From a virus, in the IMG/VR virus record IMGVR_UViG_3300047276_000715, positions 1 to 62,480 of that record: a DNA stretch of 62,480 bases; one strand, 5' to 3'. Position numbers and translations under genes: made by a program. Below the pieces are notes generated by a model that saw only the letters and a list, made by a program, of their open reading frames with translations, was not told the DNA's origin and did not search any database. This document shows, piece after piece, positions 10,215 to 36,522 of this stretch (the stretch's first letter is position 1; each line of letters opens with the position of its first letter).

Positions 10215-10222
10215 AGCCTAGC
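10215..10222 (-). promoter_or_regulatory. Late-type -10 element before lysis cassette
   Basis: GCTAGGCT on the minus strand, 26 bases before the holin-like ATG; fits the GCTANNNT pattern shared by late genes. No -35 box seen. Confidence 0.45.
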
Positions 10223-10319
10223 GACCTTGCCCGCGCAGCTTCTTGCGTCCGTGGCTGGGCTTGGAGCGGGTGCCGTTGCCTTGACGGGTGTTAAGCTGAC
10301 CATGGTTTTGGCGTGTTTC

Positions 10320-10907
10320 ATGGCTACAACTCGCAGTATCAAGCCACTGCCCCCTCTGCGCGAATTGGAGAAATGGTTTGCTATTGATGGATCGGATCTT
10401 GTTTGGCGTACCAGTTATTTCAAAGAACTTATAGGTAAGCGCGCTGGATATATGCGACCCGATGGATATGTCGAGATTAGAAAGCAAAACAATAAAATGC
10501 TTGCACATAGAATTGCTTACTACATTGCCACCAGGGAAAATCCTGGTAATTACTTTATAGATCATATAGACGGAAATCCGTCTAACAACTGTCCCAGTAA
10601 TTTACGAATGGCTACCGCAACGGAAAATCTGCGGAACTGCAGAAGATTGCGTAGAAACAATACGTCTGGCCAATCAGGCGTAACGTACGCCGTAGTTGGA
10701 GGCATCGAATACTGGAAGGCTTACGTAGTTGTCAAGGGCAGGCAGCTTCATCTTGGATCATACGCAACCAAAGAAGCGGCGATTGCCGCTAGAGAAGTTG
10801 CTGAAAAATTCACTTACGGAAAATTTGCCCCTATCGCCCTTGACCCCGAAGAGGTTTTTTGCCTCTTCGCCGAGGACAAGAATTTTGACCGTAGCCATCC
10901 CGTGTAG
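10320..10907 (+). CDS. HNH homing endonuclease with AP2 domain
   Basis: 195 residues from ATG 10320 (ATG 10302 is also possible; the frame extends upstream without family similarity). It has an N-terminal DNA-binding-like part, an HNH core (AHRIAYYIATRENPGNYFID followed by HIDGNPSNNCPSNLRMAT) and a full AP2-like end (VVGGIEYWKAYVVVKG, LHLGSYATKEAAIAAR). It is the only plus-strand gene between the lysis and tail genes, which suggests a mobile insertion between conserved late genes. It is a distant relative of the 872-1381 endonuclease, not a recent copy. Confidence 0.85.
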   Translation: MATTRSIKPLPPLRELEKWFAIDGSDLVWRTSYFKELIGKRAGYMRPDGYVEIRKQNNKMLAHRIAYYIATRENPGNYFIDHIDGNPSNNCPSNLRMATATENLRNCRRLRRNNTSGQSGVTYAVVGGIEYWKAYVVVKGRQLHLGSYATKEAAIAAREVAEKFTYGKFAPIALDPEEVFCLFAEDKNFDRSHPV

Positions 10908-10967
10908 TTTTCGGTTTACCGGCTTGATGCTCAAGCTTAGCGGTGCCGGTTTTGGATCGTACAGCCA

Positions 10968-11312
10968 TCAGTCTTGTGGAGGCATGGGGTAACGGGCGCG
11001 GATCTCAGCAACCTTGGCTTCCCATTCTTCAATGGTCGCTTCACCGCGTTGCGACTTGAAGTACAGCGGATCAGCTTCGACTTTGTAAGCGGCGAGGCGA
11101 TTGGCGCGTTGCTCTTCAGGCGTAGGTGGTACGGGTTCGGGATCAGGCGGTGCGATGAATTGACCATTGGCATAGGTCCAGCCGATACCGGCGGAAGTGC
11201 CTGCGGGGATCTTGACTAGACGTTGACCGCTAGGTGGTGTGTAGTCGGTTGGATCATCCAGCAGGATGACATTAACGACGAGGCCAGCGGTGTTGATTAG
11301 TGCGTAGGTCAT
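10968..11312 (-). CDS. Tail fibre assembly-like small protein
   Basis: 114 residues from the second ATG (11312). MTYALINTAGLVVNVI followed by a proline-rich middle (APPDPEPVPPTPEE) and a C-terminal helix with the pattern of tail-fibre assembly or fibre chaperone accessory proteins, which often sit last in the tail module next to the tip protein. ATG 11324 would overlap the upstream stop; the second start fits homologues better. Confidence 0.55.
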   Translation of the reverse strand: MTYALINTAGLVVNVILLDDPTDYTPPSGQRLVKIPAGTSAGIGWTYANGQFIAPPDPEPVPPTPEEQRANRLAAYKVEADPLYFKSQRGEATIEEWEAKVAEIRARYPMPPQD

Positions 11313-11317
11313 GGGGG

Positions 11318-12187
11318 TTACCATTCGAGGATCAGCACTACGCCAGCGGTGCCTTGGCCAATGGCGGTGGAAGTAGCAGTGCCTCCGCGACCTCTGCCTG
11401 ACATCCAGAATGAGTTGCCAACGCGTCCGGCGCTTCCAGGACTTCCAGCTGATCCGTCAATGCTAAATAGGCTGTCCGTAGAGCCACCACCACTGCCACC
11501 ACTACTACTGGCGGAGCCCCCGCCGCCTGTAATGGTCAGGCCTGTTCCGCCTGGATCAAACGAACTAGTTCCGCCAGCAGCGCCACCTGTACTGCCACCA
11601 GCGCCAACTGTAACTGTTGCACTGGCTCCCATTTCGGTTGCCGAATAAAGCCTGATCGCAGTCCCTCCACCTCCACCAGTACCACCACTAGTACCGCCAC
11701 TAGTACCAGCAGCGCCACCACCAGTGGTAAACACCAAAAATGTGGTTTTATTTGCTGTTGGCGTATATGTGCCTGAGCTAGTAAATACCTGTACAGAAGC
11801 ACCTGATGCAACAATTCCCCAACTAGCCAGTGATCCGTCAGTGGTCAATGCCTTGCCGCTGTTGCCGGCCTGGCTGGGCAGAAGTGCGGCGAGGGCTGCT
11901 GTTGCTGTGGTCTGGCCGGTGCCGCCATTGGCGATAGCGGTGATGCCGCCCGTGCTGAATGTTGTGGCGTCAATGGTGCCAATAGTGATCCAGCCGGTGT
12001 TGGAGGCGTTGCGGACCTTCCATACGGCAGGGCTGCTGCTAATGTCGATCCACGGCTGGAACGCTACCGTGACGGCTGGGGGACTGGCGCCACTTGATTG
12101 GCTGAACAGTGCTGCGAGGTTGTCGTTGATGTCGGTACGGACAGCAGGGAACGCAGCGTTCTGCACCTGCTGATCAGCTTGTGACAT
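11318..12187 (-). CDS. Glycine-rich tail tip / receptor-binding protein
   Basis: 289 residues. The N-terminal third has a fibre-like segment including AIANGGTGQTTATAALAALL, a motif found in many phage fibres. The last 130 residues are Gly/Ser-rich repeats (GGTSGGTGGGGG) ending in AGVVLILEW, the usual close of a glycine-rich domain. Such proteins form the distal adhesin of some siphovirus tails. Its start overlaps the J stop by one base. It is the best candidate for host range in the window, together with J. Confidence 0.75.
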   Translation of the reverse strand: MSQADQQVQNAAFPAVRTDINDNLAALFSQSSGASPPAVTVAFQPWIDISSSPAVWKVRNASNTGWITIGTIDATTFSTGGITAIANGGTGQTTATAALAALLPSQAGNSGKALTTDGSLASWGIVASGASVQVFTSSGTYTPTANKTTFLVFTTGGGAAGTSGGTSGGTGGGGGTAIRLYSATEMGASATVTVGAGGSTGGAAGGTSSFDPGGTGLTITGGGGSASSSGGSGGGSTDSLFSIDGSAGSPGSAGRVGNSFWMSGRGRGGTATSTAIGQGTAGVVLILEW

Positions 12188-15100
12188 CAGACCTCCCTCC
12201 CGTATCCTGTGACATTGTAAGTGTAGGGCTGGACGACGGGCTGCCCGGCTTGCGTGAACGCAGTGCTGAAGCCGCTGCGGCTTGATGCGGTGATCGCTAG
12301 AGAGTAGTCGCTTGGCATGGTTGACGCGGTGATGGTGATGGCGTTGAGGTCGTAGAAGGCGTGTTCAAAGGTGATGGTGCTATCAGTGGTTGGGATGGTG
12401 CTTGACGTAAAGCGGCGGAACAGTTCGGGGATGATGCGCAGCGCCTCGACTGCGCAATTCACCGAATCACTGTTCGATGTGAAGACAGCCTTGCATTGGA
12501 AGGCGCGACCTTGAACGGCAGCATTGATCAACTCCGTCCATGGACCCCATGATGGCGTACCAGATGGGTTGTCGTTGGTGGCGCGAATGTAGGTGACCAG
12601 GTTGATGGCGTCGATCGTTTCTCCATCAAAGAAGCCGGTGCGTGAATCAAACAAGCCGCCGGCATCGTCAAACAGGACGGATGTAGCGACAGCGCGAATC
12701 AGTGCGTAACGCCTGAACAGCACGTCATACACCGCACCCATGTCCAAGGTCTCGGCAAATGTGTATTCGGCGTACAGATCACCAACTGCATAGACCGGCT
12801 GCCAGTAGTCGGCTGCAACGTAAGGTGAGACGGTAGCCGAGGCGGCGTACAGCTCAGCAACGTAACCAGCTTCGACGTATTCGGCGCCACCTGCAATGAC
12901 CAGCGCCGTTTCAGTGTCGCTGTAAACGCAGTTGAGGCCCGTGCCGCTGAATGGTGAGGCCAGCGCCTCCTCTTGCCATTGCACACCACCGAAGTAGTAC
13001 GCATTGGCATAGTCCATTGCAACGTAAAGGTCAAGCTGCTTACGGGACTGGTAGTCGGGCAGGCTAACCTCAGCGGCGGTTGCGTTGACCGAGCGGTTGC
13101 CGAGGTAGTCCTGGAACTTGACGAAGTAGGTGCCGGGCAGCAGCGGCACCTGCTTTTGTGATGATGAACCGGCGACGGCTTCAACAATCTGCGTACTTGC
13201 AGCCCATTCAGCAGATGCAGCAGGACGTGGGTCATGGCGGATGATCACCTTGCCGCCCAGCCTCACGTCAAGCTCAGTGCTTGGCGTCCAGGTAAGCATG
13301 GCGACGCTTTCGCTAAGCGCCACGATTGACACGCTGCTTACATCAGCAGGTGCAGCGCCAAGACCCAGTATCGTATAGGTGGCTTCGGCTGGTTCGCTGT
13401 AAAGGATGTTGCTTGCGTTGATGCTTGAGACCTGAATTGAGTATGTGCCAGGTTTGGCGTCAAGGATGTCGAATGTAGTACCTTGAACGGTTACGGTTGT
13501 GAAGTTGTCATCTTCGTAGCGATACTTGACGCGGAAGTTCTTGATGCCTTGCGGTCCTTTCCATCCGAAGGTGACCTTGACCGCAATGCGTCCATTAAGT
13601 TCGTACTGCACCTCTTTTGTGGTACCGCCACCCTGCATGGGGATGTCAAGCACCGCAAGTTCAGTCGGTGTCGCAGGGATTGTGTTCAGCGTGGTGGTGC
13701 TGCGTGGTTGCAGCGGCACATTTTCTTCGACGTAGGCGTACTTGGCCGGATCATGCGTGATGGCGCTGATCGTATAGGCAAGATCGTCTTGCTCCTGAAT
13801 AGAAAGCACACGCCAGAGCGTTGGTTGTACGGCTGTGCGTTCCAGTAGCCAGACGCTATTTGGGTTCGGTGCCACGGTGAACGGCGCCTGTACGGTGATG
13901 ACAGCACCAGTGATGTCCGAGACGTACTGCTTCTCAACGGTGCCATCGGGCAGGATCACTGATAGCTGCGAGCTGCCGTCGTAGGTCAGATCGGTTGCGG
14001 CGGTGTCATCAACTGTGACGGTGGTTGTGGTTGCAGAGGCGATGCGACCGGCGAGGCGTGAGCCAGAACGCACCGGATCGGCAATGGCGATGATCTGCCC
14101 AGGCCGCAGCTGCTGCCCTGCATCGAGGCTGGCGGTGAAGCTGCACGCTTCGCCGTAACGCTCGGTGTAGAGCATCCACCGCCCGATGCGATTGGCTTGG
14201 CCGCGACTGGTGCAGGCGAAGGCGCTGACTTCAGTCTTGACGACGCCGTACTTGTCGATCGCCTCGATGTCCTCGACCACCTCGTAAGCGGTGTCGCGGA
14301 GGCCATCAACCCACTTACCGGCCACGTAGTCGTAGCGTCCCACGTCCAGATAGGACACGACGCAGACGTTAGGCCGCGTCTTGAGACTGCCGTTGGTATA
14401 GGAGAACCCTTCAGCAGAAACGTTGGCGGTAGTGAACAGGTAGGCCGGATCAGCTGGTGCATCTTGCGCGATCGTTAGCGAGCCAGCATCCCAGAACCCT
14501 TGGCAGCGAAACACCGACAGCAGATCATTGATCAGCTTGTAGGCATCTTCAGCGGTTTGGGTGTTGGTGTTGCAGGAGAAGCGTGGCTCATAGCCGCCAT
14601 AGCCATCGGGGACGCCGTGCTTGCCGGTGGCCGGGTGATAGTCATTTGTTGTACCGCCAGGGCGGGTGTCCTGTGCTGAGCTGTACCGCGATGCAGCGTA
14701 GAAGGCCCACTTGTCAAGCTGTGACGCTTGGATGTGATCACCGAAGCCGTAGCGGGTGCTGGTGAGCAGATCCCACAAACACCAGGCCGGATCGGCGCAC
14801 CATGTCGCAGCCGTGAAGGTGCCATCCCAGATACCGGAATAGATCAGCGCCCCGTTGATCGGGTCAACCGTGGCATTGGTTGGGATCTGAATCTTGATGC
14901 CTTTGATGAGGTAGCTGCGTTTCGGGATGCTGCCAAACTGTTCCGCGTCGATGCGGAAACCAATCAATGCACTATTTGGGTATGTGAGTTTGGCGAGGAT
15001 GATCTCGGTGTAGCTTGCCCAGTTAAACGCATCAGTCAGCAACGAATTGGTGCTGTCAGCCGTTACCCGCGTGACGCGGATGTCTACGTTATCTGTTGGA

Positions 15101-15669
15101 TTAGGGCGGTTGAGTCTGATCTCGTAGTCAATGCGGTATTCATCACCAGTGCGACCTGTGATGGTACCGGCAGCGCCGCTGATCACATTGGTATAGCCAC
15201 CGCCTGCATACTGGACGGCGATTGCAAGTTCAATTTTGGCGCCGCTGGTGTCGCCTGTGCTGGCGTTGATTACCTGCAATGATGGCACGGCAACCGTGAT
15301 CCGCACAGCGTCAACTTCATCGTTGGTGATTGTGCGAACAACGGGAACGTCCTTGACGACAGTAATGCCAACAGGGATTTCGTTTGATGGGTTGGCAGCA
15401 ATAGGGATGTAGGCTTGCGTTTGCGTGCCGGTGCGAACGTGAACCTCTACGTCCTTGAAGTTGTAGCTGCCGTCTAAGTTCTGAAGTGGTGTGTCATTGA
15501 GATAGATGGACTTCATGCCATCAACCAAGCCCTCAATTTCACCTTCAGAAATGAGGTCAATAACATTGGCGTACTGCCGTGAGTCAAGGCTGTCTTTGGC
15601 GGTGCTCGGTGTGCGTGAACTGCCGCCGCCATCCTTGCCACCAGCACCTGCAATGAATGGCTTGCTCAT
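12187..15669 (-). CDS. Tail tip protein J-like (host specificity)
   Basis: 1160 residues, close to lambda J (1132). Opens with the J-type start ([16 protein letters not shown], then SEGEIEGLVDGMKSIYLN). The central part carries the hub domains and, from about 650 to 850, fibronectin-III-like strands (FRVKYRYEDDN, GTYSIQVSSINASN). The C-terminal third is probably the receptor-facing part. It forms the tail tip with L, I and K products. It overlaps the I gene start by 4 bases. Confidence 0.88.
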   Translation of the reverse strand: MSKPFIAGAGGKDGGGSSRTPSTAKDSLDSRQYANVIDLISEGEIEGLVDGMKSIYLNDTPLQNLDGSYNFKDVEVHVRTGTQTQAYIPIAANPSNEIPVGITVVKDVPVVRTITNDEVDAVRITVAVPSLQVINASTGDTSGAKIELAIAVQYAGGGYTNVISGAAGTITGRTGDEYRIDYEIRLNRPNPTDNVDIRVTRVTADSTNSLLTDAFNWASYTEIILAKLTYPNSALIGFRIDAEQFGSIPKRSYLIKGIKIQIPTNATVDPINGALIYSGIWDGTFTAATWCADPAWCLWDLLTSTRYGFGDHIQASQLDKWAFYAASRYSSAQDTRPGGTTNDYHPATGKHGVPDGYGGYEPRFSCNTNTQTAEDAYKLINDLLSVFRCQGFWDAGSLTIAQDAPADPAYLFTTANVSAEGFSYTNGSLKTRPNVCVVSYLDVGRYDYVAGKWVDGLRDTAYEVVEDIEAIDKYGVVKTEVSAFACTSRGQANRIGRWMLYTERYGEACSFTASLDAGQQLRPGQIIAIADPVRSGSRLAGRIASATTTTVTVDDTAATDLTYDGSSQLSVILPDGTVEKQYVSDITGAVITVQAPFTVAPNPNSVWLLERTAVQPTLWRVLSIQEQDDLAYTISAITHDPAKYAYVEENVPLQPRSTTTLNTIPATPTELAVLDIPMQGGGTTKEVQYELNGRIAVKVTFGWKGPQGIKNFRVKYRYEDDNFTTVTVQGTTFDILDAKPGTYSIQVSSINASNILYSEPAEATYTILGLGAAPADVSSVSIVALSESVAMLTWTPSTELDVRLGGKVIIRHDPRPAASAEWAASTQIVEAVAGSSSQKQVPLLPGTYFVKFQDYLGNRSVNATAAEVSLPDYQSRKQLDLYVAMDYANAYYFGGVQWQEEALASPFSGTGLNCVYSDTETALVIAGGAEYVEAGYVAELYAASATVSPYVAADYWQPVYAVGDLYAEYTFAETLDMGAVYDVLFRRYALIRAVATSVLFDDAGGLFDSRTGFFDGETIDAINLVTYIRATNDNPSGTPSWGPWTELINAAVQGRAFQCKAVFTSNSDSVNCAVEALRIIPELFRRFTSSTIPTTDSTITFEHAFYDLNAITITASTMPSDYSLAITASSRSGFSTAFTQAGQPVVQPYTYNVTGYGREV

Positions 15670-16244
15670 GCCTTCACCTGCACGGTATCAACGCCAGCAC
15701 TAATCACAATGCTGCCCAGAAGCGTTTTGCCGTAGACCACAGGGACGGGAGTGCCCTGGCGTGAGGTTTGCTGGATGCCTGAGAAGTTGTAGGTCTTGCG
15801 TGGATCTTGATCGACTGCCTGCATCTTTGGTGTAGGTGTTAGCAGTTGAGCGACTCCGCCAAGGACCAATCCACCGCCAAGGCTGAGCAATGCTGCTCCG
15901 ACCGTGAGCTTGCTACCGAAGATGGCAGCTGCTTGAAGGCCAGAAATAAAGCTAAGGCCGATGAGCACTGCGCCAAGAATGATCCGGCCAACCGTTCCAG
16001 CCCCTGCAACCACCGGGGCAATGCTGATCTCCTGCTGCCCTGCTGGATCGTGCAGCTCGTCTTTGTCCAATGCGTAGGTGCCAACGCTTACCCGGTAGTG
16101 CTGATCAGCCATGTGCTGCTCCAGCTCAGGCCAATTGGCCAGCAGGAACCGCACCGCTTCGGCTGCGCTGCTTACATCAGCTTCAAGGACGCGATGGCCG
16201 ATGAACTTCGCCAGCTTGCCGTATAGCTTGATCCTACGCAGCAT
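15666..16244 (-). CDS. Tail assembly protein I-like
   Basis: 192 residues, similar in size and shape to lambda gpI. A ubiquitin-like N-terminus ([20 protein letters not shown]) is followed by two hydrophobic segments (about 85-150) and a C-terminal [18 protein letters not shown] that resembles the start of the J family. It is needed for tail tip assembly and is not expected in the mature particle. Overlaps K by 11 bases. Confidence 0.8.
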
Positions 16245-23527: not shown

Positions 23528-23535
23528 AGTCTAGC
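23528..23535 (-). promoter_or_regulatory. Late-type -10 element before tape measure gene
   Basis: GCTAGACT on the minus strand, 25 bases before the tape measure ATG and directly after the GT terminator, so the tail-tip block can be restarted here. Confidence 0.5.
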
Positions 23536-25536: not shown

Positions 25537-26307
25537 TCAGGCGCTTTGTGACAGATCGACGGAGACGTTCGCGGTTGGACGGAAGTTGATGGCCACGCTG
25601 ATCGCGTCATCGGGGTTCACGTTCAGGCTCGCGCTGGTCAGCACAACTTCCATCGAGATTGAGCGTGAAGCGGTTTCACTCACCGAGCCACTGACAACAA
25701 CGCGATCAACATAAAGACGCATTGCGGCGCCAACCTGCTTGCGCTGAAGCACGTCTTCGACCATCCGGTTCGCCAGAGCGGCGTCCTCATCGGTCATGTA
25801 GACGTTCGCGGTGCCATTGCCATCGGCGAAGCCGGTGATGTAGGTCTTGAACGGTGCGTACTGACCTGCATCCTGGCCAATGGTGGTAACGTCGATTTCG
25901 CTTCGAGTAATTTCAAAGCTCCAATCGCGCACCTGAGAAACAAGAGCGTAGTCCGCGTAATCAACACGGAATTCGTTCGGGGCAGTTGCAGTACCAGTGG
26001 TGGTCAGGGTGACAGAAGAACCGCCAAGGGTCGCGGAAACTTTCAGAACACCAGTACCAGGGGTGTACTGAATGACGTAGTAAGTGGTGCCAGCGGTAAG
26101 GCCACCGGGAAGCGTGCCGGCGACAGTACCACCTTGAACGTTGTAAACAGCAAACTTGACGGGATCGCCAACCTTGAGATTCAGGTACGACTCAACAACG
26201 ATTTCGTTGGTTGCAGTGGTAACGTTGGCAGGAGCAAAGGTGCCAGTGGTGCCGGCGGGCTTATACGAAAGAGCGCCAGAAGTGCCGGAAAGGACAGTTG
26301 CGGGCAT
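25537..26307 (-). CDS. Major tail tube protein
   Basis: 256 residues. The N-terminal 115 residues contain Thr/Gly/Val-rich strands (GGLTAGTTYYVIQYTPGTGV) like an Ig- or fibre-type insertion. The rest has the tail tube pattern: VRDWSFEITRSEIDVTTIGQ, then FKTYITGFADGNGTANVYM. One tube protein per phage, sited between the terminator-of-tail and chaperone genes. It carries a strong terminator behind it, in keeping with high expression, and a GCTAGTCT element 45 bases upstream. Confidence 0.85.
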   Translation of the reverse strand: MPATVLSGTSGALSYKPAGTTGTFAPANVTTATNEIVVESYLNLKVGDPVKFAVYNVQGGTVAGTLPGGLTAGTTYYVIQYTPGTGVLKVSATLGGSSVTLTTTGTATAPNEFRVDYADYALVSQVRDWSFEITRSEIDVTTIGQDAGQYAPFKTYITGFADGNGTANVYMTDEDAALANRMVEDVLQRKQVGAAMRLYVDRVVVSGSVSETASRSISMEVVLTSASLNVNPDDAISVAINFRPTANVSVDLSQSA

Positions 26308-26351
26308 GACGAAGAAAGCAGGGGGTCAGTGGGCACTGCCCAGCTAGATAC

Positions 26352-26359
26352 AGACTAGC
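26352..26359 (-). promoter_or_regulatory. Late-type -10 element before tail tube gene
   Basis: GCTAGTCT on the minus strand, 45 bases before the ATG of the tail tube gene. Confidence 0.42.
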
Positions 26360-27312: not shown

Positions 27313-27690
27313 TCAGCTAAGCCTCCCCACAATCGAATGCAGGATAGCGCTATCACCCCTCGGTGACAGCACGCCGACTATCTTTGCTGTTTTTGAAACG
27401 CCGCCTTGTGTGTATCTGATCGAATCAGTAGTGCGCGGAAAATAACCAGAAAGCTCGCTAGCCGCAATGACGAATTTTACGTCAGTCATTTGATACAGCC
27501 CCTGCAGCTCCTGTGGCTTCAGTTGCGCAAAAACAACTTTTACGGGGATTTCAGTGGCAGCGCCAGAAAGAACTCCTGTTGTTGGATTGTAAGTTGGGCT
27601 TGCGTTCGCCTTGATATAAGTAGCGCTTGATCCAAACTCCGAAAGCAGCGGGCCTGGAATTGAACCAAAAATGTCGTCAACAAGAGACAT
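27313..27690 (-). CDS. Head closure / stopper-like protein
   Basis: 125 residues, mostly beta. The segments ATYIKANASPTYNPTTGVLS and EIPVKVVFAQLKPQELQG fit the small beta-barrel stoppers that close the portal channel. Neighbouring connector genes on both sides support this; sequence evidence alone is weak. Confidence 0.6.
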   Translation of the reverse strand: MSLVDDIFGSIPGPLLSEFGSSATYIKANASPTYNPTTGVLSGAATEIPVKVVFAQLKPQELQGLYQMTDVKFVIAASELSGYFPRTTDSIRYTQGGVSKTAKIVGVLSPRGDSAILHSIVGRLS

Positions 27691-28597: not shown

Positions 28598-29581
28598 TCA
28601 GATGTAGCAGCGAAGCTGCGTGATCCGAATGTTGCGGTTGTCGGTAAACACCTTCTGCCAGTTGGTGCCAGTGGCCAGTTCGGTGTTGGTGGGGGAGCTA
28701 CCAGCAGCGTTACCAGTCCAGCTGATCCCGTTCGGGTGAACGAGATAGTGGGTCCGATTGATCAGATAGTCGATACCTTTCAGGGAATCGCGATCTGGTT
28801 CGATCGGGGTCTTGGCGGGAGCGGTTGCGAAAGCAAAAGCACCAGGGCCGAAGAAGTAGGTGTGCAGCACGTCAGCGCCACCAGTGCCAGCGCCAGCGTC
28901 GATCGGCAGGGTGTCATCAACGAAGACCGGGCGACCCAGGTAGGTGCCAAGCTCCAGGCGTTGAGCGGACAGCCGCGTATCGAGCTGCGAGGTGCTGGAG
29001 GCCGGGACGATCAGATCCAGCTTCATCAGGGCGTAGTAGATGCGGGAGTGCATCAGAACGCCAGTCAGCTCCTGGCCTGCATCACCCAGCTTGGCGATAG
29101 CATCAACCATCACGCTCTGCGAGAGCTGAGTGCTGGTGCCGCCGGCAGCGTGGGAGGAAGTCAGGGGACCACCAGTTGCAAACATGCCCTTGATCGTGCT
29201 GATCAGGGTGGTTTGCATGTCGCGCACCCAGTATTGGCCGGTGCGACGAGCGATGGCCTGCATGGGATCGGAGCCGGCCAGTTCACCAGCCAGGTCAGAG
29301 GCCTTCCAGGCCTTACCACGCATGTTGCGAACGCCGGTTTGAACGTCGCCGGAGAGGGTGGCAGCGGTCAGGCCAACGGTGTCATCGAGGATCTCCGAAT
29401 CACCGGAGAGATCACCGAAGAAAGGAAGGTCGATGGTCTTGCCGCCCTTGGAAAACTCAGCCTGGATGGCTTCGTTCGTGACCATCAGGCCGGAGGTGAC
29501 AAGAGCGTTGCGGTTTTGCAGCTCTTCCTGCTGGTATTCCAGGAAAAGCTGAGGAATGAAAGGAATGCCAGCGAAGAGCAT
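28598..29581 (-). CDS. Major capsid protein
   Basis: 327 residues, HK97-type fold expected. Markers: N-terminal FIPQLFLEYQQEELQNRNAL, KTIDLPFFGDLSGDSEIL, VRNMRGKAWKASDLAGELAG, then SRIYYALMKLDLI and LGRPVFVDDTLP, all typical of the capsid family with no N-terminal scaffold domain (scaffold is the separate gene at 30906). It is followed by a terminator. The start codon is preceded by GAGG. A GCTACTCT element lies further upstream (29713), leaving a leader of over 100 bases, unlike other late genes. Confidence 0.92.
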   Translation of the reverse strand: MLFAGIPFIPQLFLEYQQEELQNRNALVTSGLMVTNEAIQAEFSKGGKTIDLPFFGDLSGDSEILDDTVGLTAATLSGDVQTGVRNMRGKAWKASDLAGELAGSDPMQAIARRTGQYWVRDMQTTLISTIKGMFATGGPLTSSHAAGGTSTQLSQSVMVDAIAKLGDAGQELTGVLMHSRIYYALMKLDLIVPASSTSQLDTRLSAQRLELGTYLGRPVFVDDTLPIDAGAGTGGADVLHTYFFGPGAFAFATAPAKTPIEPDRDSLKGIDYLINRTHYLVHPNGISWTGNAAGSSPTNTELATGTNWQKVFTDNRNIRITQLRCYI

Positions 29582-29712
29582 TGTCTTTGCCTCAAGGGAA
29601 AAAGATGAACGGGTTGCGGCACCGCCGCCGATGTGAAAAGAAAGACTTGCTTCGGTACAACCGAGCGGTGAGCACTGCGGCTCGGGGGTGAGGCACCGCC
29701 TCTATCACTGAC

Positions 29713-29720
29713 AGAGTAGC
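29713..29720 (-). promoter_or_regulatory. Late-type -10 element upstream of capsid gene
   Basis: GCTACTCT on the minus strand, 132 bases before the capsid ATG. Longer leader than the other late genes; the intervening bases hold no gene. Confidence 0.35.
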
Positions 29721-29916: not shown

Positions 29917-29933
29917 GATAGTAAGGCAATTTA

Positions 29934-29959: not shown

Positions 29960-29981
29960 CTGGGATCTCAGCAGGAAGTGA

Positions 29982-30278: not shown

Positions 30279-30355
30279 GGCGATTGAGGTGAGCGCTCGA
30301 ACACATGCTAGGAGTCCCCGCGAGGTCTAGCCTTTGCATAGTTTTAGGAGGAAGT

Positions 30356-30547
30356 GTGTCAGAAAAACGAACCTGGAACTCACCAATACGTGAACCATGG
30401 AATCCAGTCATTCGCAATATACTTCAAGCGATTGATACTCACAATCAGCTCTACTTTAAGACAGGAAAACCATGGCACTTGCAGAAAGCGCAAGAGCTAA
30501 GGGGTTATGTAATAGAGTTGAAGGAATGGATTGCAAGTAATGAATAA
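30356..30547 (+). CDS. Small plus-strand protein, 63 aa
   Basis: The start is GTG 30356, set by an excellent AGGAGG at 30346-30351 four bases upstream. An upstream ATG (30305) lies in the same frame but has no ribosome site. The product has NSPIREPWNPVIRN, then QLYFKTGKPWHLQKAQELRG and WIAS. No family recognised. It is isolated on the plus strand inside the minus-strand head module, which suggests an independently expressed or acquired gene. Confidence 0.65.
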   Translation: MSEKRTWNSPIREPWNPVIRNILQAIDTHNQLYFKTGKPWHLQKAQELRGYVIELKEWIASNE

Positions 30548-30556
30548 ACCCCTTAT

Positions 30557-30829
30557 CTACCATTTTTCCTTATCTGCCCAATAAGCCGCACTCATCTTTC
30601 CTTTAGCAATGTTCTTGGCGTGCCTTGCTTTAAAGGAACGCTGACGAGCTTTTTCTGCTTCAGTGCGCGGATTACTGCCAGCCCCTCTGACGCCCTGCTG
30701 CCCAAAGCGAATCAGTTTGACTTCGCCGTTTTCTTTTGCAAGTACAGCATGTGACTTAGTTGGGTGATTAGGCGTTCTCTTGGGTTTATTGTAACCTTCA
30801 AAAGTTTCACCACGATAAGTAATTGACAT
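30557..30829 (-). CDS. DUF6321-type small protein
   Basis: 90 residues from ATG 30829. YNKPKRTPNHPTKSHAVLAK, IRFGQQGVRGAG and a very well kept end, FKARHAKNIAKGKMSAAYW. This is a widespread phage protein family with no known function, seen also in cyanomyoviruses. Preceded by GCTACAGT at 22 bases. Converges with the plus-strand gene 30356-30547, 9 bases apart. Confidence 0.75.
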   Translation of the reverse strand: MSITYRGETFEGYNKPKRTPNHPTKSHAVLAKENGEVKLIRFGQQGVRGAGSNPRTEAEKARQRSFKARHAKNIAKGKMSAAYWADKEKW

Positions 30830-30850
30830 TTTTCGGTGATAGCTACCAAA

Positions 30851-30858
30851 ACTGTAGC
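30851..30858 (-). promoter_or_regulatory. Late-type -10 element before DUF6321 gene
   Basis: GCTACAGT on the minus strand, 22 bases before the ATG and directly behind the scaffold terminator. Confidence 0.5.
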
Positions 30859-30861
30859 AAT

Positions 30862-30884
30862 AAAAAAAGCCCCCGAAGGGGCCG
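30862..30884 (-). terminator. Terminator after scaffold gene
   Basis: Minus strand GGCCCC, TTCG, GGGGCT, then TTTTTTTATT. Placed 22 bases after the scaffold stop. Confidence 0.88.
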
Positions 30885-30905
30885 TTCATCAACCACCGCT
30901 TCAGG

Positions 30906-31745
30906 CTACATGGATTGCAGCGCTCGGCCCAGGACGGGATCGAGCTTGCCGGCCAGGCGAGCCTCGGCGATCAGCCGCTTCGCCTTGTCAGGGTCTTTCT
31001 GCAGGATCTCAGCGGCCTTCGTCGCGTTCAGGCTGTCCTTGTTGAACGGGTTGTTCGAGTAGGTAGGTGCATTTGCACGACTTGTCGTCATGCCAGAACC
31101 AGTTGCGCCACTTCCTGCAAAGTAAACGGCAAACTCTTCGTCATCGCGCAGGCGAGACACGGCATCGCGCAAAGACACCGGGTCTTCCTCTGACCCAAAA
31201 ACAACGGTGCTTTCGTCGTCGAGAAGACGGAACTTCTCTTTCAGCAACTTGTAGAGGTGAGAAGGACGACGGCACTCAACCTTCGACAATTCATCTGTGA
31301 CGAATCGCTCAAGTTTGTTTTCGCGACGCTTTTCGCGTTCGTTGTTGCGCTCCTGCTCAAGGGACTCGTTCACCTTGCGCAGGTCGGACAGTTCTTTGCG
31401 AAGCGAGGCGAATTGCGCCTTCACGGCCTCGTCCATGGCCTCGGAGGGTGTCTGTCCCTGCGGAGCGGCAGGAGCCTCTCCCTGAGGCGCAGAGCCCTGA
31501 GCTGAGGCCTTCGAGAGAGCGGAGATGCGCTCGGCGATGTCGGATTCGTCCAGGTCGTCGGTCAGCTCAATGCCAGCAACTTTCAAAAAGCTGTCGATTG
31601 TCTTTTTCTTCTTGAGATCCTTGAGCAGTCCTTGATTCGTTGCCTTGAGTTTGACGCTTTCGCTTTCAATGGACTCCGCTTTTTTCTGCAGAGCCTGAAT
31701 CAGCGTAAGCGCATCCTCAAGGGTTTCAGGGGTGTGGTCAGACAC
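30906..31745 (-). CDS. Capsid scaffolding protein
   Basis: 279 residues. A coiled-coil start (ALQKKAESIESESVKLKA), a long charged centre (VNESLEQERNNEREKRREN), a lower-complexity Ala/Pro/Gln section and the end KAAEILQKDPDKAKRLIAEA. Scaffolds of this type guide capsid assembly and leave the head. The position between portal and capsid genes agrees. No protease gene is visible nearby, so the scaffold is probably released without cleavage by a phage protease. Confidence 0.78.
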   Translation of the reverse strand: MSDHTPETLEDALTLIQALQKKAESIESESVKLKATNQGLLKDLKKKKTIDSFLKVAGIELTDDLDESDIAERISALSKASAQGSAPQGEAPAAPQGQTPSEAMDEAVKAQFASLRKELSDLRKVNESLEQERNNEREKRRENKLERFVTDELSKVECRRPSHLYKLLKEKFRLLDDESTVVFGSEEDPVSLRDAVSRLRDDEEFAVYFAGSGATGSGMTTSRANAPTYSNNPFNKDSLNATKAAEILQKDPDKAKRLIAEARLAGKLDPVLGRALQSM

Positions 31746-31765
31746 GAAAAATCATTGTTGACTCA

Positions 31766-33499
31766 CTACATGGTAGCACCATCAGCTTCATTTGCTTCAA
31801 CAGCGCCTTCGGTCATTTCGCGATCATGTCCTTCGCTGAGCATGTGTGAGTTATCGACCGGCACCTGGCCTCTGTTTGGGGATTGCGCAGCATTGCCACC
31901 GCCAGCACCAACACCAATGTCCTTCGCGGTTTCACTGCCATCAAGCCCCATGCTTTCCAGGAGATCATGAACGCTGAAGTTCGGGAGACCTTCAAACATT
32001 TCGCCCGCCTCAAGCATTTTCAAGAACATTTCAATTGTGATAACATTACTATCCTTGAACAGCGTATTAAGAGCAAGAACCTGCTGCGAATGCAGCTTGA
32101 CAGGAATGAAGTTCTTGCTAATTGTAATTTGCACTTTCTCAATTGAACGATATGCCGAGGCGTACAGCAGGGCGCGATTGATCGAGTCTTGCAGCCCTTG
32201 AACCAGTACGGCGAGCTGAGAATCGCTTTGTGAACGATCAAGCAACTTTGCAAAACCAGATTCGGCCTGTGTTTTGCTGGTTGTCATTGCAACAGCAGCA
32301 AGTCGTTCCATCGCCGCTTCAATTCGACGCAGATTTTCGAGCGTAACCGAGGCTCCTTCCATAGAAGCACTCATCAAATTGAATTTTGCGTCTGGATTTT
32401 GCGAGAACATCGCACGTCCAGCACCTGCCTTGATTTCGTCATCTGGCCTGACACCAGTTCCGGTAAGGATTGGCGAGGAGGTGAGGTGAATTGTCTCTGC
32501 AAGATCAGCAGAAACACTCCAATGATGCAAGTTAAGGCGTGCAATATCAAAAAGAAGTGGGCGGGCGCGGAAATATGCCTCTTTTTTGCCTCCAAACACC
32601 GGGACAAAGGGAATGAATGACACGGAAAGATAACTTGTCTCCTCAAGACGGTATTTATCAACCGAATCGGTCCCATTCAGCTTTGTGTAAAGACGATGAC
32701 GAACGCGCTGTCCCTCAACAAAGCTTTCTGGTGTGTCAGAAAACTCAGAGATTGTATTATCTGCCATGTTTACAATATCGTAAACACGAACGGCAGGGAC
32801 AACTTCTTCAAAAAACTCGTTATTCTCGCTCTTGCGACGAACTTCTGTCTTCAGTCGCAGGTAGATCGGGAATGCACCAAAGATGTTTTCCGTGCCAACT
32901 TGAGCATTGAAGACATCATATCTACACTCAAGCACTTGATCATAGCGCATAAGCACAAGATATGGACGAGGATTTAGCCTTTTCTCCTCGCTCGCGCTCA
33001 AATTTGCTGGCAGCTTCGGGTATTCGACCCAGATCCCGGACACACCGCCATCCAGGGCCTCGGTGAAGGCCTCCTTCGAGAACGAGACGAGAGAATGCCC
33101 CTCCAGGTCAACGTCATCGAAGAAATTTCCCCATTCAGGAGGGATCATTTCAGGCACAGCAACACCTTTTCGCAGCGCCGTACCAGTGACTAGATCGCGA
33201 AGATGTGAGTAGTAATTCTGAAAGCTACTCTGTGATCGTGTTTTGCGAACTTCGTAACTCTGATTTTCTTCTAAATAGTCTTTTGGAAGGTATTCTTCCG
33301 ATGCCTCAAGTAAGTAGTATTCAGGAAGCGTGCAAAAACGAATAGGGGCGAGACGAGAAAACTGCTCAGCTTGCTCAAGCGAGTAGGCATCAACACCGGA
33401 TACCTCCTCAAACGCCTGTTCGTATTCAGGATGACGACGCTCAAACGGAAGTGTCAGGTTATCGGTTGTCGGAACCAGCGAATTAGGGATGAGCGTCAC
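31766..33499 (-). CDS. Portal protein (DUF4055-like)
   Basis: 577 residues. The N-terminal third (VSGVDAYSLEQAEQFSRLAP, FQNYYSHLRDLVTGTALRKG), the SGIWVEYP segment and RPYLVLMRYDQVLECRYDV follow the DUF4055 portal family; the region after residue 300 is helical with the expected long stem helix. The portal ring is the DNA gate and the anchor for the large terminase. Lies between terminase and scaffold. Confidence 0.88.
   Translation of the reverse strand: MTLIPNSLVPTTDNLTLPFERRHPEYEQAFEEVSGVDAYSLEQAEQFSRLAPIRFCTLPEYYLLEASEEYLPKDYLEENQSYEVRKTRSQSSFQNYYSHLRDLVTGTALRKGVAVPEMIPPEWGNFFDDVDLEGHSLVSFSKEAFTEALDGGVSGIWVEYPKLPANLSASEEKRLNPRPYLVLMRYDQVLECRYDVFNAQVGTENIFGAFPIYLRLKTEVRRKSENNEFFEEVVPAVRVYDIVNMADNTISEFSDTPESFVEGQRVRHRLYTKLNGTDSVDKYRLEETSYLSVSFIPFVPVFGGKKEAYFRARPLLFDIARLNLHHWSVSADLAETIHLTSSPILTGTGVRPDDEIKAGAGRAMFSQNPDAKFNLMSASMEGASVTLENLRRIEAAMERLAAVAMTTSKTQAESGFAKLLDRSQSDSQLAVLVQGLQDSINRALLYASAYRSIEKVQITISKNFIPVKLHSQQVLALNTLFKDSNVITIEMFLKMLEAGEMFEGLPNFSVHDLLESMGLDGSETAKDIGVGAGGGNAAQSPNRGQVPVDNSHMLSEGHDREMTEGAVEANEADGATM
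31770..31777 (-). promoter_or_regulatory. Late-type -10 element before scaffold gene
   Basis: GCTACCAT on the minus strand, 25 bases before the scaffold ATG, inside the portal gene end. Confidence 0.42.
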
Positions 33500-33520
33500 T
33501 GCTTTAGCGCCTTTTCAAGC

Positions 33521-33528
33521 ATTGTAGC
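33521..33528 (-). promoter_or_regulatory. Late-type -10 element before portal gene
   Basis: GCTACAAT on the minus strand, 22 bases before the portal ATG. No TTGACA-like box 17 bases upstream. Confidence 0.5.
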
Positions 33529-33549
33529 CACCATCTCGCTTTGTAGGTC

Positions 33550-34950
33550 TTAGCGCCAGCGCTGTCCACGATTCATCCCGATGCCAGGACGCGGCATAGA
33601 CTGCCAAACCAAATAACGCAAGGCGTCGCCAAAGTGCGAGAAATCTCTACTACCACCCTTGGCGGGTCGCAAGGTGTTGTCATAGCCCCAGCTTTCCATC
33701 ATCTCAATCACGTCATGACAAGTAGATGGATTGATAAGTATCTGTCCACGATGCAAGCAATTGTTCGTGTGTGAAACAGTTTCTGCAACGGGTGGGTTTC
33801 GGCGTTCTGCAATCACCTTGCATCCTGCTTCACGCAAAATATCGTGATCACTCATGGTTGAAGAAGTGCTGGCGTGTGAACCAGAGCTATCCGGGTAAAC
33901 GACAACCATCCCCTTCGCCAGGTGTATCGGGAAGCGTCGCTTGATGTGCTCAGCAAGAGCGAATGTATCTCTGCAAAGAAATTCCTCAAAGACATGCAGT
34001 TGCTGCCCTTGCGGTGACTGTCGCATGACTGAGTAAACGCTAGAGCTTTTGCCAACGTTGAAGTCACACCCGATAAGCACTGGTTCGTTCTGTTCTGCAT
34101 GAAACACGCTTGTAACGTGCTTCTCTCGCATAAACTCGGAGAAGACGGTTGCGGTTTCAAGGTTGACGAACAGGCCCTTGATGTAGGCATCAGCAAGATG
34201 CTGTGGGTAGTTTGCAAGAAGGTCTTTGACGTAGTTTTCATCAAGGTGCGGGTTCTGCCTTGTGTCTGCTCTATAAATCGCTTTGTCATCTGTTTTATTC
34301 TTCTCAAAGAAGTTCCAAACAAACTTACGACCTTCTGGCGTAGATGCGAAGCAAATTTGAGGACACTTGCCAACGCGAACACGACCTTGCAGTTTGATCA
34401 ACGCAGCTTCTGCAATTTCTTGCTTAACAGTGTCAGCTTCGTCAATAACAAGCGACGCAGCGTTGATACCCACCAATCGCTCAACGTTCATCAAGGGGCG
34501 AAGGAGGATGGTTGTTTCTCCTTTCGGAAGATGCAACGTAAAGCTCGGTTGAGGTGAAATCCTCATCGAGTACGGAATATCGTACTTGTCAAGCAGTTTT
34601 GTCCATGTAGGAATTGCGATGTCATTCAACATCACATAAGTAGGTTCAAGATAAATATGAAACTCACCTTGACTGCGAAACGCAAGAAGAATCGCTTTAG
34701 CAACACTGCTGTATGACTTCCCACTACCAAGGCCTCCGACATAGAGAACATATCTTTGTTCCCAGTTGCAAACAAAATCACGTTGATGCGGGAGCAGATC
34801 AGCAAGGATTCTCGCCTCTGCTGCGTCAACATCAAATCTTGAGTTTGTTCGTGCTCGCAATCTCTTGATTGCTGAGTTTGCCTCAAACAGCCCAAGCCCT
34901 TGCAATGACGCCCTGTCTGCGTATTTTCCGCTACGTGATTTTGCTGGCAT
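33550..34950 (-). CDS. Terminase large subunit
   Basis: 466 residues. The ATPase half has Walker A GGLGSGKS (72-79) and Walker B LVIDEAD (167-173); the nuclease half has the first acidic strand IGCDFNVG (Asp296), VVYPDSSG and HFGDALRYLV (Asp442). It pumps DNA into the prohead and cuts it. Unlike in many phages, the small subunit is not next door: the best candidate is at 39148-39891, across a repeat region. GCTATAGT lies 22 bases upstream of the start. Confidence 0.93.
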   Translation of the reverse strand: MPAKSRSGKYADRASLQGLGLFEANSAIKRLRARTNSRFDVDAAEARILADLLPHQRDFVCNWEQRYVLYVGGLGSGKSYSSVAKAILLAFRSQGEFHIYLEPTYVMLNDIAIPTWTKLLDKYDIPYSMRISPQPSFTLHLPKGETTILLRPLMNVERLVGINAASLVIDEADTVKQEIAEAALIKLQGRVRVGKCPQICFASTPEGRKFVWNFFEKNKTDDKAIYRADTRQNPHLDENYVKDLLANYPQHLADAYIKGLFVNLETATVFSEFMREKHVTSVFHAEQNEPVLIGCDFNVGKSSSVYSVMRQSPQGQQLHVFEEFLCRDTFALAEHIKRRFPIHLAKGMVVVYPDSSGSHASTSSTMSDHDILREAGCKVIAERRNPPVAETVSHTNNCLHRGQILINPSTCHDVIEMMESWGYDNTLRPAKGGSRDFSHFGDALRYLVWQSMPRPGIGMNRGQRWR

Positions 34951-34971
34951 CGTTTCCGCTCTCTTGTTTTT

Positions 34972-34979
34972 ACTATAGC
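34972..34979 (-). promoter_or_regulatory. Late-type -10 element before terL
   Basis: GCTATAGT on the minus strand, 22 bases before the terminase ATG. No -35 consensus at the expected place. Confidence 0.52.
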
Positions 34980-34980
34980 G

Positions 34981-35235
34981 TCACTTTTTCTTGCGACGAT
35001 GCTGATAGCTTATTTTCTTTGAACTTGTTTTTTCGCGCTTGAACTTACGCTTCTCTGCTGCGGTCAGCTCTTTTGAAGTCTTCGGCGTATCGGCAGAAAC
35101 TCTCCTGGAAGGCCTACAGGCCGGGTATCCACGCCGCTTCTCCCCCTCCGATCGCCCACAAGGCTTGCCGGTCTTGATGTCCACCCACTCTTCGTCGAAC
35201 CAGCGCGTCAGCCCTGATTTCGCCCTGCCAGGCAT
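34981..35235 (-). CDS. DUF5872-like small basic protein
   Basis: 84 residues: GLTRWFDEEWVDIKTGKPCG then KRRGYPACRPSRRVS, and a Lys-rich end. This short Cys-containing family (DUF5872-like) is found in many phages, including cyanomyoviruses, and in some large viruses, with no known function. It ends right at the late promoter of terL, and starts 9 bases after the 49-residue gene upstream. Confidence 0.75.
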   Translation of the reverse strand: MPGRAKSGLTRWFDEEWVDIKTGKPCGRSEGEKRRGYPACRPSRRVSADTPKTSKELTAAEKRKFKREKTSSKKISYQHRRKKK

Positions 35236-35244
35236 CGCACCGCC

Positions 35245-35394
35245 TCAACTCACCACACGATACTTCCCACCACGCTTCTTGTATTCACGTACCAACCAAG
35301 CATTTGCGTAAGCGCTAGGATAAACCTTAAACTTGCGCTTTGCTGCAGCCTTTACGCGAGCATATAAAGCTTTGTCGGTGGGGACGTTTTTCAT
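35245..35394 (-). CDS. Small conserved basic phage protein, 49 aa
   Basis: Read directly on the minus strand: ATG 35394, MKNVPTDKALYARVKAAAKR then KFKVYPSAYANAWLVREYKK and an RGGKYRVVS end. The VYPSAYANAWLVxEYKxRGG pattern is very common in phages and often lies beside the DUF5872-like protein, as here. Function unknown. GCTAGGGT lies 22 bases before the start. Confidence 0.75.
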   Translation of the reverse strand: MKNVPTDKALYARVKAAAKRKFKVYPSAYANAWLVREYKKRGGKYRVVS

Positions 35395-35411
35395 TTGACT
35401 TTTTTAACTGC

Positions 35412-36170
35412 TCACACCCTAGCGCCTTTCGGAAGTCTGTGATACAGCATTTCCTTGCTGTGAGTATTGTTACCTTCAGCTTTTCTTGACGTAACTGATT
35501 TTCTAAAAAATTCAAAAGGTAGATAGTCTGGCGCTTTGCTGGTTTTAGGGCAAATTGCTTCACATACAATTACCTGACCAGCAAGATTGTCAACGGCTAT
35601 TGATAGTCTTTTGTAATCAAATTCACTTTTTGCCCTGTATCTGTAATTATAGAGATATGGCGGATCAATAAACCATGTGACTTCTGGGTCATTTTTCAGG
35701 TCCGACTCAAGCACGTCAAAGCCGTCCCGGAACACCTCCCAGTGCTTTACCGCCTGGATGTCTCTTGAGACCCTTGACCGAGTGCTTTCGGTCCACTGAC
35801 CAGGCATGTTGCCCCACGGAGAGATCGTCCAACAGTCGCCAACGTTATTTGTTCTTTGCCAGTTCTTTAATAGCAACTGCTGCCCCTTTTGCATCGGGAG
35901 AATCCTTATGTCCATTCCAACTGGAAGCTCGACCGGAATATCGGTTATATCTTCGCTTTGTGCATTCTCTACAAGCCATTTCCAAAGCTCGTAAATATGC
36001 AAGTCTGCTTCTGCAATTTTAACAATTGTGGTATTGTGTCTAAGCGAGTATCCGGCGCCTCCTGCAAATGGTTCAATAATCTTATTGCCATGCGGCGCTG
36101 GATAATACCTTGAACCTTGCCACTTAGAGCCAAACCATTTAAAAAGCGGTCCGCTGACTTTTGCGCTCAT
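35412..36170 (-). CDS. DNA adenine N6-methyltransferase (D12 class)
   Basis: 252 residues from ATG 36170, chosen because AGGAG lies 7 bases upstream; the frame continues to a TTG at 36191. Motif I is IIEPFAGGAG (31-40) and the catalytic motif FIDPPY (167-172). N-terminal FKWFGSKW is also typical of Dam-like enzymes. It probably methylates a short target such as GATC to protect phage DNA from restriction; the target cannot be read from the sequence. No partner nuclease is visible. Follows a 29-residue membrane peptide gene. Confidence 0.88.
   Translation of the reverse strand: MSAKVSGPLFKWFGSKWQGSRYYPAPHGNKIIEPFAGGAGYSLRHNTTIVKIAEADLHIYELWKWLVENAQSEDITDIPVELPVGMDIRILPMQKGQQLLLKNWQRTNNVGDCWTISPWGNMPGQWTESTRSRVSRDIQAVKHWEVFRDGFDVLESDLKNDPEVTWFIDPPYLYNYRYRAKSEFDYKRLSIAVDNLAGQVIVCEAICPKTSKAPDYLPFEFFRKSVTSRKAEGNNTHSKEMLYHRLPKGARV
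35416..35423 (-). promoter_or_regulatory. Late-type -10 element inside methylase end
   Basis: GCTAGGGT on the minus strand, 22 bases before the 49-residue gene ATG; identical to the element at 36515. Confidence 0.48.
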
Positions 36171-36183
36171 TCCATTCTCCTGT

Positions 36184-36273
36184 TTATTCAAGAATCAGAG
36201 AGGCGAGGTAAAGAATCAATGCACAAACAGCAATGTATGCTGCTGATAGCAGTGCAAGATCATGCAAGGTCAT
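36184..36273 (-). CDS. 29-residue membrane peptide
   Basis: ATG 36273 overlaps the end of the upstream gene; the product MTLHDLALLSAAYIAVCALI continues to LILE and is almost entirely one hydrophobic helix. It ends 13 bases before the methylase start. Such single-helix micropeptides in phages often modulate a membrane enzyme or lysis timing, but nothing shows which here. Confidence 0.45.
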   Translation of the reverse strand: MTLHDLALLSAAYIAVCALILYLASLILE

Positions 36274-36487
36274 CGTTCTTCACCTCAACTAAAGAGTAGC
36301 GCGTCCTCACTGTTTCGAGTGCTCTTGTAATTGCATCAACCTGATCCAGGTCAGGGTAAAACTCAACACGACAAAACACGGCACTGTCAGCATCTAAGTC
36401 AATCGTAATTCGTTTGATGTATTTTTGCTTAAGTCCTAGTGCTTCAATAATCTGTCTTGAACAGGCACTGGCAGGAGTGATCGACAT
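36260..36487 (-). CDS. Hypothetical protein, 75 aa
   Basis: N-terminal helix with SRQIIEALGL, then beta-rich KRITIDLDADSAVFCRVEFY and a final helix (AITRALETVRTRYSL). It may be a small two-layer fold. It heads a probable operon with the micropeptide and methylase and has GCTAGGGT 28 bases upstream. No family recognised. Confidence 0.6.
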   Translation of the reverse strand: MSITPASACSRQIIEALGLKQKYIKRITIDLDADSAVFCRVEFYPDLDQVDAITRALETVRTRYSLVEVKNDDLA

Positions 36488-36514
36488 TGCATTGCGCTCA
36501 ATAGCCCGACTGTC

Positions 36515-36522
36515 ACCCTAGC
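36515..36522 (-). promoter_or_regulatory. Late-type -10 element before methylase operon
   Basis: GCTAGGGT on the minus strand, 28 bases before the ATG at 36487. Same octamer as at 35416. Confidence 0.48.

What the first reader, a model, noticed from the sequence alone, without database searches (positions are those of the whole stretch)
10215..36522. A -10-only promoter, GCTANNNT, 22-28 bases before many late genes
Seen: minus-strand octamers GCTAGGCT (10215), GCTAGACT (23528), GCTAGTCT (26352), GCTACTCT (29713), GCTACAGT (30851), GCTACCAT (31770), GCTACAAT (33521), GCTATAGT (34972), GCTAGGGT (35416 and 36515). Eight of the ten lie 22-28 bases before a start codon; the others lie 45 and 132 bases away. 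No TTGACA-like box is visible 17 bases upstream in the cases I read. In contrast, the early genes have full -35 and -10 boxes. This looks like a late promoter class with short leaders.
Basis: partly seen in the sequence, partly recalled or inferred. Interest (0 to 1): 0.75.

Follow-up and report, generated by a model that had tools for sequence, protein, structure and literature searches.

The report
Phage late promoters lacking -35 box
In a virus that probably infects cyanobacteria, late genes carry a tiny "start here" signal (GCTANNNT) a fixed short distance upstream; it is conserved in relatives, and the virus carries its own polymerase-steering sigma protein whose altered tail could explain why the usual second signal is missing.

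Summary
Observation confirmed. All ten octamers lie at the stated places; eight are 22-28 nt before a start codon, the others 45 and 132. GCTANNNT is not frequent genome-wide (72 vs 96 expected), but 9 of 29 late genes have it 20-30 nt upstream (0.39 expected, 1000 shuffles, max 3), and it is the top of all ABCDNNNE patterns. In relatives it is conserved before portal (16/19), scaffold (17/21), putative tail-tube gene (11/11), capsid (20/20) and tape measure (3/3), while NNN varies. 55 non-redundant sites give RKYGCTANNCTG-N5-A: A (47/55) or G (6/55) sits exactly where +1 should be. No -35 signal. Seven early promoters have TTGACA-N17-TATAAT-like elements. So these are -10-only promoters with mostly 15-21 nt leaders.

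New: the phage encodes a sigma-70-type factor (6966-7922) with intact regions 1.2-3 but an atypical region 4.2 lacking usual -35-reading residues; all four portal-clade contigs of 46 kb or more have it, and GC-form enrichment appears only in genomes with it. My best explanation is that this sigma reads the late class (about 55%). The main rival is host sigma: cyanobacterial promoters also lack -35 boxes, and sigma-less cyanophage S-H1 has similar sites without the GC. Precedents: phiEco32 gp36, T4 gp55.

The parts
33521..33528 (-). -10 element GCTACAAT of the portal promoter; predicted +1 (A) 33514; 15-nt leader to GTG 33499
   Evidence: GCTANNNT in 16/19 distinct orthologous upstream regions
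31770..31777 (-). -10 element GCTACCAT of the scaffold-gene promoter, overlapping the 3' end of the portal gene; predicted +1 (A) 31763; start GTG 31745
   Evidence: 17/21 distinct orthologues, nearly always at the same distance
30851..30858 (-). -10 element GCTACAGT just after an intrinsic terminator; predicted +1 (A) 30844; start ATG 30829
   Evidence: 14/19 orthologues have the motif at 21-23 or 51-52 nt, mostly right after a terminator
26352..26359 (-). -10 element GCTAGTCT of gene 25537-26307 (putative tail tube, by position); predicted +1 (A) 26345; 38-nt leader with a GGGCAGTGCCC hairpin
   Evidence: 11/11 orthologues; NNN differs (GTC, TTC, CGC, GCC, ACC) while GCTA and T stay
29713..29720 (-). 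-10 element GCTACTCT of the major capsid gene (28598-29581); predicted +1 (G) 29706; about 125-nt structured leader
   Evidence: 20/20 distinct sequences (window included) have GCTANNNT at the head of a 110-190 nt leader
23528..23535 (-). -10 element GCTAGACT of the tape-measure gene, after an intrinsic terminator; predicted +1 (A) 23521; start GTG 23503
   Evidence: conserved in all fetched orthologues (3/3 distinct)
34972..34979 (-). -10 element GCTATAGT of the large-terminase gene; predicted +1 (A) 34965; start ATG 34950
   Evidence: GCTANNNT in 5/17 orthologues; one other (L017) has a -35/-10 pair there instead
35416..35423 (-). -10 element GCTAGGGT of a 49-aa conserved gene (35245-35394); predicted +1 (A) 35409
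   Evidence: 4/6 orthologues have GCTANNNT at 21-28 nt
36515..36522 (-). GCTAGGGT before gene 36260-36487; predicted +1 C, weaker candidate
   Evidence: distance fits; not conserved in orthologues (1/6, the window itself)
10215..10222 (-). GCTAGGCT before gene 9914-10189, overlapping the stop codon of 10218-10565; predicted +1 (G) 10208
   Evidence: distance fits; no orthologues fetched for comparison
27341..27348 (-).
   Evidence: orthologues have TANNNT at the same place, partly with GC
6966..7922 (+). RNA polymerase sigma factor (318 aa), proposed reader of the late class
   Evidence: PHROG 351 E 1.7e-56; Pfam sigma-70 regions 1.2, 2, 3 above cut-off, region 4 below cut-off; orthologues in L031-L066
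41945..41973 (-). Early promoter TTGACA-N17-TATAAT (example; others have their -10 at 44830, 46358, 47671, 48450, 51009, 51853)

Best explanation
Each octamer is the -10 element of a late promoter without a -35 box: R(-17) K(-16) Y(-15) G C T A N N C(-8) T(-7) G(-6) N5 A(+1). Transcription starts at a purine (usually A) 7 nt after the final T, giving mostly 15-21 nt leaders that usually lack a Shine-Dalgarno sequence, so individual late genes or small operons are fired separately, several right behind a terminator of the previous unit. The early block uses TTGACA-N17-TATAAT promoters that host sigma can read. The rightward middle genes include a phage sigma factor (6966-7922); host core polymerase carrying it would melt the GC-extended -10 through regions 2.4 and 3, while its altered region 4.2 no longer reads a -35, so late promoters need none. 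Shown by sequence: motif, position, conservation, +1 purine, no -35, sigma gene and its altered residues. My probabilities: promoters about 0.92; read by the phage sigma about 0.55.
For: Positional enrichment beyond every other pattern. Conservation before portal, scaffold, capsid, tail-tube and tape-measure genes, with NNN free. Purine at the canonical +1 distance, A 47/55 and G 6/55; chosen without the GC filter, TANNNT is about 5-fold denser at 18-32 nt than at 55-95 nt, with GC 41% vs 7% and +1 A 60% vs 13%. No -35. Sigma gene in the window and in all four portal-clade contigs of at least 46 kb. Sigma clade (29 sequences, including the window): R588 to Q in 28/29, Q589 lost in 28/29, E585 lost in 26/29 (E. 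coli numbering), region 2.4 conserved but T440 to Q in 28/29; sigmas of S-CBS1 and KBS-S-2A keep R-E-R-x-R-Q and score above the Pfam region-4 cut-off, as does S-CBS3, whereas the window's does not. GCTANNNT enrichment before ORFs in window, G002 and G009 (z 4.9, 3.2, 3.0) but not in G013, G015, S-CBS1/2/3, KBS-S-2A, S-LBS1, MED4-184, S-H1, AAT-1. Published logic: phiEco32 gp36, without region-4 homology, uses single-element promoters; the 7-11 sigma keeps region 4 and uses bipartite ones (PMC8948821).
Against: Cyanobacterial host promoters themselves show a -10 and +1 A without a -35 consensus (PMC3219970), and S-H1, with no detectable sigma, has TANNNT+A sites before late genes (7 vs 1.1 expected), so host polymerase may suffice. 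Early promoters, presumably host-read, also carry GC before the -10. Region 4 is altered, not absent: 7 of 22 members give weak Pfam hits and AlphaFold2 still folds it as helices; window sigma keeps E585. A few orthologous late promoters have a -35 (L017 terL; L024 g36170). The link between sigma type and motif rests on one clade, so it may be shared ancestry.
Confidence: 0.55

Rival explanations
1. The octamers are -10-only promoters read by host RNA polymerase with host SigA or a host group-2 sigma, as is usual for cyanobacterial promoters; the phage sigma serves another gene set or only tunes strength.
For: Host promoters lack a -35 consensus and prefer +1 A (PMC3219970). Similar TANNNT+A sites precede late genes in sigma-less S-H1 and in KBS-S-2A, whose sigma has a normal region 4. 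Published Ma-LMM01 late promoters look host-type (PMC5780444). Early promoters also have GC at -14/-13.
Against: GC-extension enrichment is confined to genomes with this sigma type; the S. elongatus -10 consensus (--Ta-aaT) has no GC and has A, not C, at -8; the sigma's promoter-reading residues changed in the same clade.
Confidence: 0.37
2. The motif is not a promoter but a conserved RNA processing, translation or coding feature near gene starts.
For: Some copies overlap the 3' end of the preceding gene (31770, 35416, 10215), and most of these genes lack Shine-Dalgarno sequences.
Against: Spacing to start codons varies (21-131 nt) while spacing to the +1 purine is fixed; sites lie just after terminators; the same octamer occurs in early promoters 17 nt after TTGACA.
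Confidence: 0.05
3. Chance pattern picked out by eye.
For: Genome-wide the octamer is no more common than chance.
Against: 9 vs 0.385 expected, better than any pattern in 1000 shuffles; conservation in independent contigs.
Confidence: 0.02

Closest known systems
phiEco32 middle/late promoters read by phage sigma gp36 (consensus tAATGTAtA; PMC8948821, PMC4331800)
   Same: Single-element promoters near -10 without a -35, before structural genes, in a phage that encodes a sigma lacking a normal region 4 and whose early genes use host sigma promoters
   Different: Different sequence; here the sigma is a sigma-70-like factor with regions 1.2-3 intact and a relic region 4; host probably a cyanobacterium; no assay yet
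T4 late promoters (TATAAATA) with gp55, gp33, gp45 (background knowledge)
   Same: -10-only late promoters read by a phage sigma without sigma-4 promoter contacts
   Different: Motif differs; no clamp or gp33 dependence tested; here many promoters sit directly before single genes with short leaders
Cyanobacterial host promoters (S. elongatus --Ta-aaT, +1 A, no -35; PMC3219970)
   Same: TA...T core, +1 adenine, no -35 consensus
   Different: GC at -14/-13 and C at -8 in the late phage class; fixed closeness to start codons
Extended -10 promoters of sigma-70 (TGnTATAAT) and sigma-S-like CTATACT (background knowledge)
   Same: G at -14; C at -13 and C at -8 recall the sigma-S form
   Different: No T preference at -15 (18/55), degenerate -10 to -9
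Sigma factors of cyanosiphoviruses S-CBS1, S-CBS3, KBS-S-2A
   Same: Phage sigma with regions 1.2-3, 36-46% identical to the window's
   Different: Their region 4 is above the Pfam cut-off and GCTANNNT is not enriched

Membership tests
sigma-70-family promoter -10 element | T(-12) A(-11) and T(-7), with a purine at +1 about 7 nt downstream | tested here: met
   A 47/55 and G 6/55 at +1; +1 composition was not part of the selection; also without the GC filter
sigma-70-family promoter -10 element | -35 element about 17 nt upstream | tested here: not met
   2.76 vs 2.79 matches in shuffles
extended -10 promoter (TGn) | T at -15 and G at -14 | tested here: not met
   G fixed by selection and enriched when unselected (55% vs 17%); T at -15 only 18/55
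phage-sigma single-element late promoters (phiEco32 gp36 type) | phage encodes a sigma | tested here: met
   6966-7922, PHROG 351
phage-sigma single-element late promoters (phiEco32 gp36 type) | sigma lacks a working region 4 | tested here: inconclusive
   region 4 below Pfam cut-off, key residues changed, but helices predicted
phage-sigma single-element late promoters (phiEco32 gp36 type) | phage sigma holoenzyme initiates at the motif | not testable with these tools
   needs in-vitro transcription
T4-type late promoter | TATAAATA | tested here: not met
   consensus is GCTANNCTG
host-type cyanobacterial promoter | TANNNT, +1 A, no -35 | tested here: met
host-type cyanobacterial promoter | no GC extension; A at -9/-8 | tested here: not met
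   GC 41% vs 7% control among unselected TANNNT; C at -8 in 32/55
sigma-70 group 1/2 factor | regions 1.2, 2, 3 | tested here: met
   22/22 members

The most novel reading that the evidence does not exclude
An uncultivated cyanophage clade has a co-evolved pair: a sigma-70-type factor whose region 4.2 no longer reads a -35 and whose region 2.4 changed (T440 to Q), matched to late promoters reduced to GCTANNCTG-N5-A, one before many individual structural genes. The most abundant structural mRNAs get structured leaders instead of stronger promoters.
Probability: 0.42. Interest if true: 0.62.

Novelty: new variant of a known kind. Interest (0 to 1): 0.52.

Why it matters
Late transcription control in cyanophages with siphovirus-type genomes is nearly undescribed; papers I read note a sigma gene in such phages without saying which late promoters it reads. 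This gives a precise promoter consensus with predicted start sites, a candidate reader and residues to test, and lets late operons be annotated in uncultivated relatives. It also offers a natural case of a sigma that may have lost -35 readout while keeping a region-4 fold.

Tried and rejected
Megablast of the late region against phage records: no match. Portal against bacterial genomes: no relative; sigma against bacterial genomes: only distant hits, so host not identified; a cyanobacterium is inferred from the nearest phage portals and sigmas. Unconstrained EM motif search found terminators and a ribosome-site/start-codon-like motif rather than the promoter, so enumeration with shuffles was used. 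PWM scan in cultured cyanosiphoviruses: no GC-form enrichment in S-CBS1/2/3 or S-LBS1; S-H1 unexpectedly positive (8 vs 0.6), which led to the host-sigma rival. Upstream activator site: logo shows no strong conserved block upstream of -17. Rfam: only two tRNAs. Contigs of the portal clade of 30 kb or less showed no sigma, but they are fragments and say nothing on absence.

Full report
WHAT THE WINDOW IS. A 62,480-base virus record without a close match among 50,697 phage records. Head and tail genes run leftward from about 36.5 to 8 kb (terminase, portal, scaffold, major capsid, tape measure, tail fibre J, endolysin); an AT-rich leftward block (37-53 kb) is probably early; replication and nucleotide genes run rightward (53-62 kb and 0-8 kb). 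Nearest portals by E-value are from cyanophages and nearest sigmas from Synechococcus phages, so the host is probably a picocyanobacterium (inference; not confirmed). Thirty relatives encode portals 73-83% identical.

OBSERVATION. All ten octamers and their distances are right. GCTANNNT is below chance genome-wide, but 9/29 late genes have it at 20-30 nt (0.385 expected; max 3 in 1000 shuffles), and no other ABCDNNNE pattern exceeds 4 there; the best of any pattern in shuffles was 6.

CONSERVATION. In relatives the motif is kept before portal 16/19, scaffold 17/21, gene 26307 11/11, gene 30829 14/19, tape measure 3/3 and terminase 5/17, and capsid 20/20. NNN varies while GCTA and T stay, e.g. 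GTC, TTC, CGC, GCC, ACC at gene 26307. In several relatives with different upstream DNA the motif reappears right behind a terminator.

ANATOMY. 55 non-redundant sites give RKYGCTANNCTG-N5-A. GCTA...T is fixed by selection, but the +1 signal (A 47/55, G 6/55), C at -8 and G at -6 are not. Without requiring GC, TANNNT is about 5-fold denser at 18-32 than at 55-95 nt, and there shows GC 41% vs 7% and +1 A 60% vs 13%. No -35 remains. In the window seven of the ten sites have A at +1, two G and one C. Seven early promoters have TTGACA-like boxes 17 nt upstream, all with the same GC before the -10.

A CANDIDATE READER. The window encodes a sigma factor at 6966-7922, also present in all four portal-clade contigs of 46 kb or more. 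Regions 1.2, 2 and 3 are normal; region 4 is below the Pfam cut-off in the window. Aligned on E. coli sigma-70 region 4.2, R588 is Q in 28/29 and Q589 is lost in 28/29; E585 is lost in 26/29, though kept in the window; R584 is kept in 20/29, not in the window (the E. coli residues and their role in -35 contact are background knowledge). T440 in region 2.4 is Q in 28/29. S-CBS1 and KBS-S-2A sigmas keep the canonical residues, and they and S-CBS3 score above the cut-off. AlphaFold2 (mean pLDDT 71.5) still predicts region-4 helices, so the domain is altered rather than missing. GCTANNNT enrichment appears only in genomes with this sigma type. Published precedent: phiEco32 versus 7-11 (PMC8948821).

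WHY NOT CERTAIN. Cyanobacterial promoters lack a -35 consensus and prefer +1 A (PMC3219970). S-H1, without detectable sigma, has TANNNT+A before late genes (7 vs 1.1), as has KBS-S-2A (10 vs 2.0), without GC preference. So the compact -10-only layout may be general for cyanosiphoviruses and read by host polymerase; what is special here is the GC extension, C at -8 and the altered sigma. I therefore hold 'promoters' at about 0.92 and 'read by the phage sigma' at about 0.55.

VERDICT. Real, well supported, new variant of a known kind (single-element phage late promoters).

LEADERS. The capsid leader is 110-190 nt and in 20/20 sequences carries 1-3 copies of a hairpin with core GGCNGTGCC (43 copies; 0.09 expected in shuffles), with compensatory changes in the adjacent outer pair (G-C 18, A-T 12, T-A 3, C-G 1). 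The same core follows +1 of gene 26307. Cyanophages KBS-S-2A, S-H1 and MED4-184 have similar hairpins before capsid genes. Early leaders start with different 5' hairpins. Function unknown; mRNA stabilisation or protein binding are guesses.

Noticed in passing
29582-29706 (minus strand), relatives L001-L030: Major capsid gene leader (110-190 nt) carries 1-3 tandem hairpins with core GGCNGTGCC in 20/20 sequences (43 copies vs 0.09 expected), with compensatory changes; similar hairpins precede capsid genes of KBS-S-2A, S-H1 and MED4-184. No Rfam family.
   Followed up: partly
26331-26341 (minus strand): The same hairpin core (GGGCAGTGCCC) lies 4 nt after the predicted +1 of gene 25537-26307, conserved in all orthologues seen.
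   Followed up: partly
6966-7922 (plus strand): Phage sigma factor with intact regions 1.2-3 and an atypical region 4.2; orthologues in many uncultivated phages.
   Followed up: yes
41952, 44837, 46365, 47678, 48457, 51016, 51860 (minus strand): Seven early promoters share AAATGC or AAATAC directly before the -35 box, and six of the seven predicted transcripts begin with a 5' hairpin whose stem sequence differs each time (z -2 to -6).
   Followed up: partly
late region 8-36.5 kb: Genes behind the short-leader promoters mostly lack Shine-Dalgarno sequences (scaffold 0/28, gene 26307 0/14, portal 19%), while capsid and genes 28356 and 25476 mostly have them.
   Followed up: no
6459-6619 (plus strand): tRNA-Leu(TAA) and tRNA-Met(CAT) lie side by side just upstream of the sigma gene.
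   Followed up: no
9948-9955 (minus strand) and 5238-5245 (plus strand): Further GCTANNNT copies 23-24 nt before start codons (a 48-aa ORF, and gene 5270-5818) that may belong to the same class; conservation not checked.
   Followed up: no
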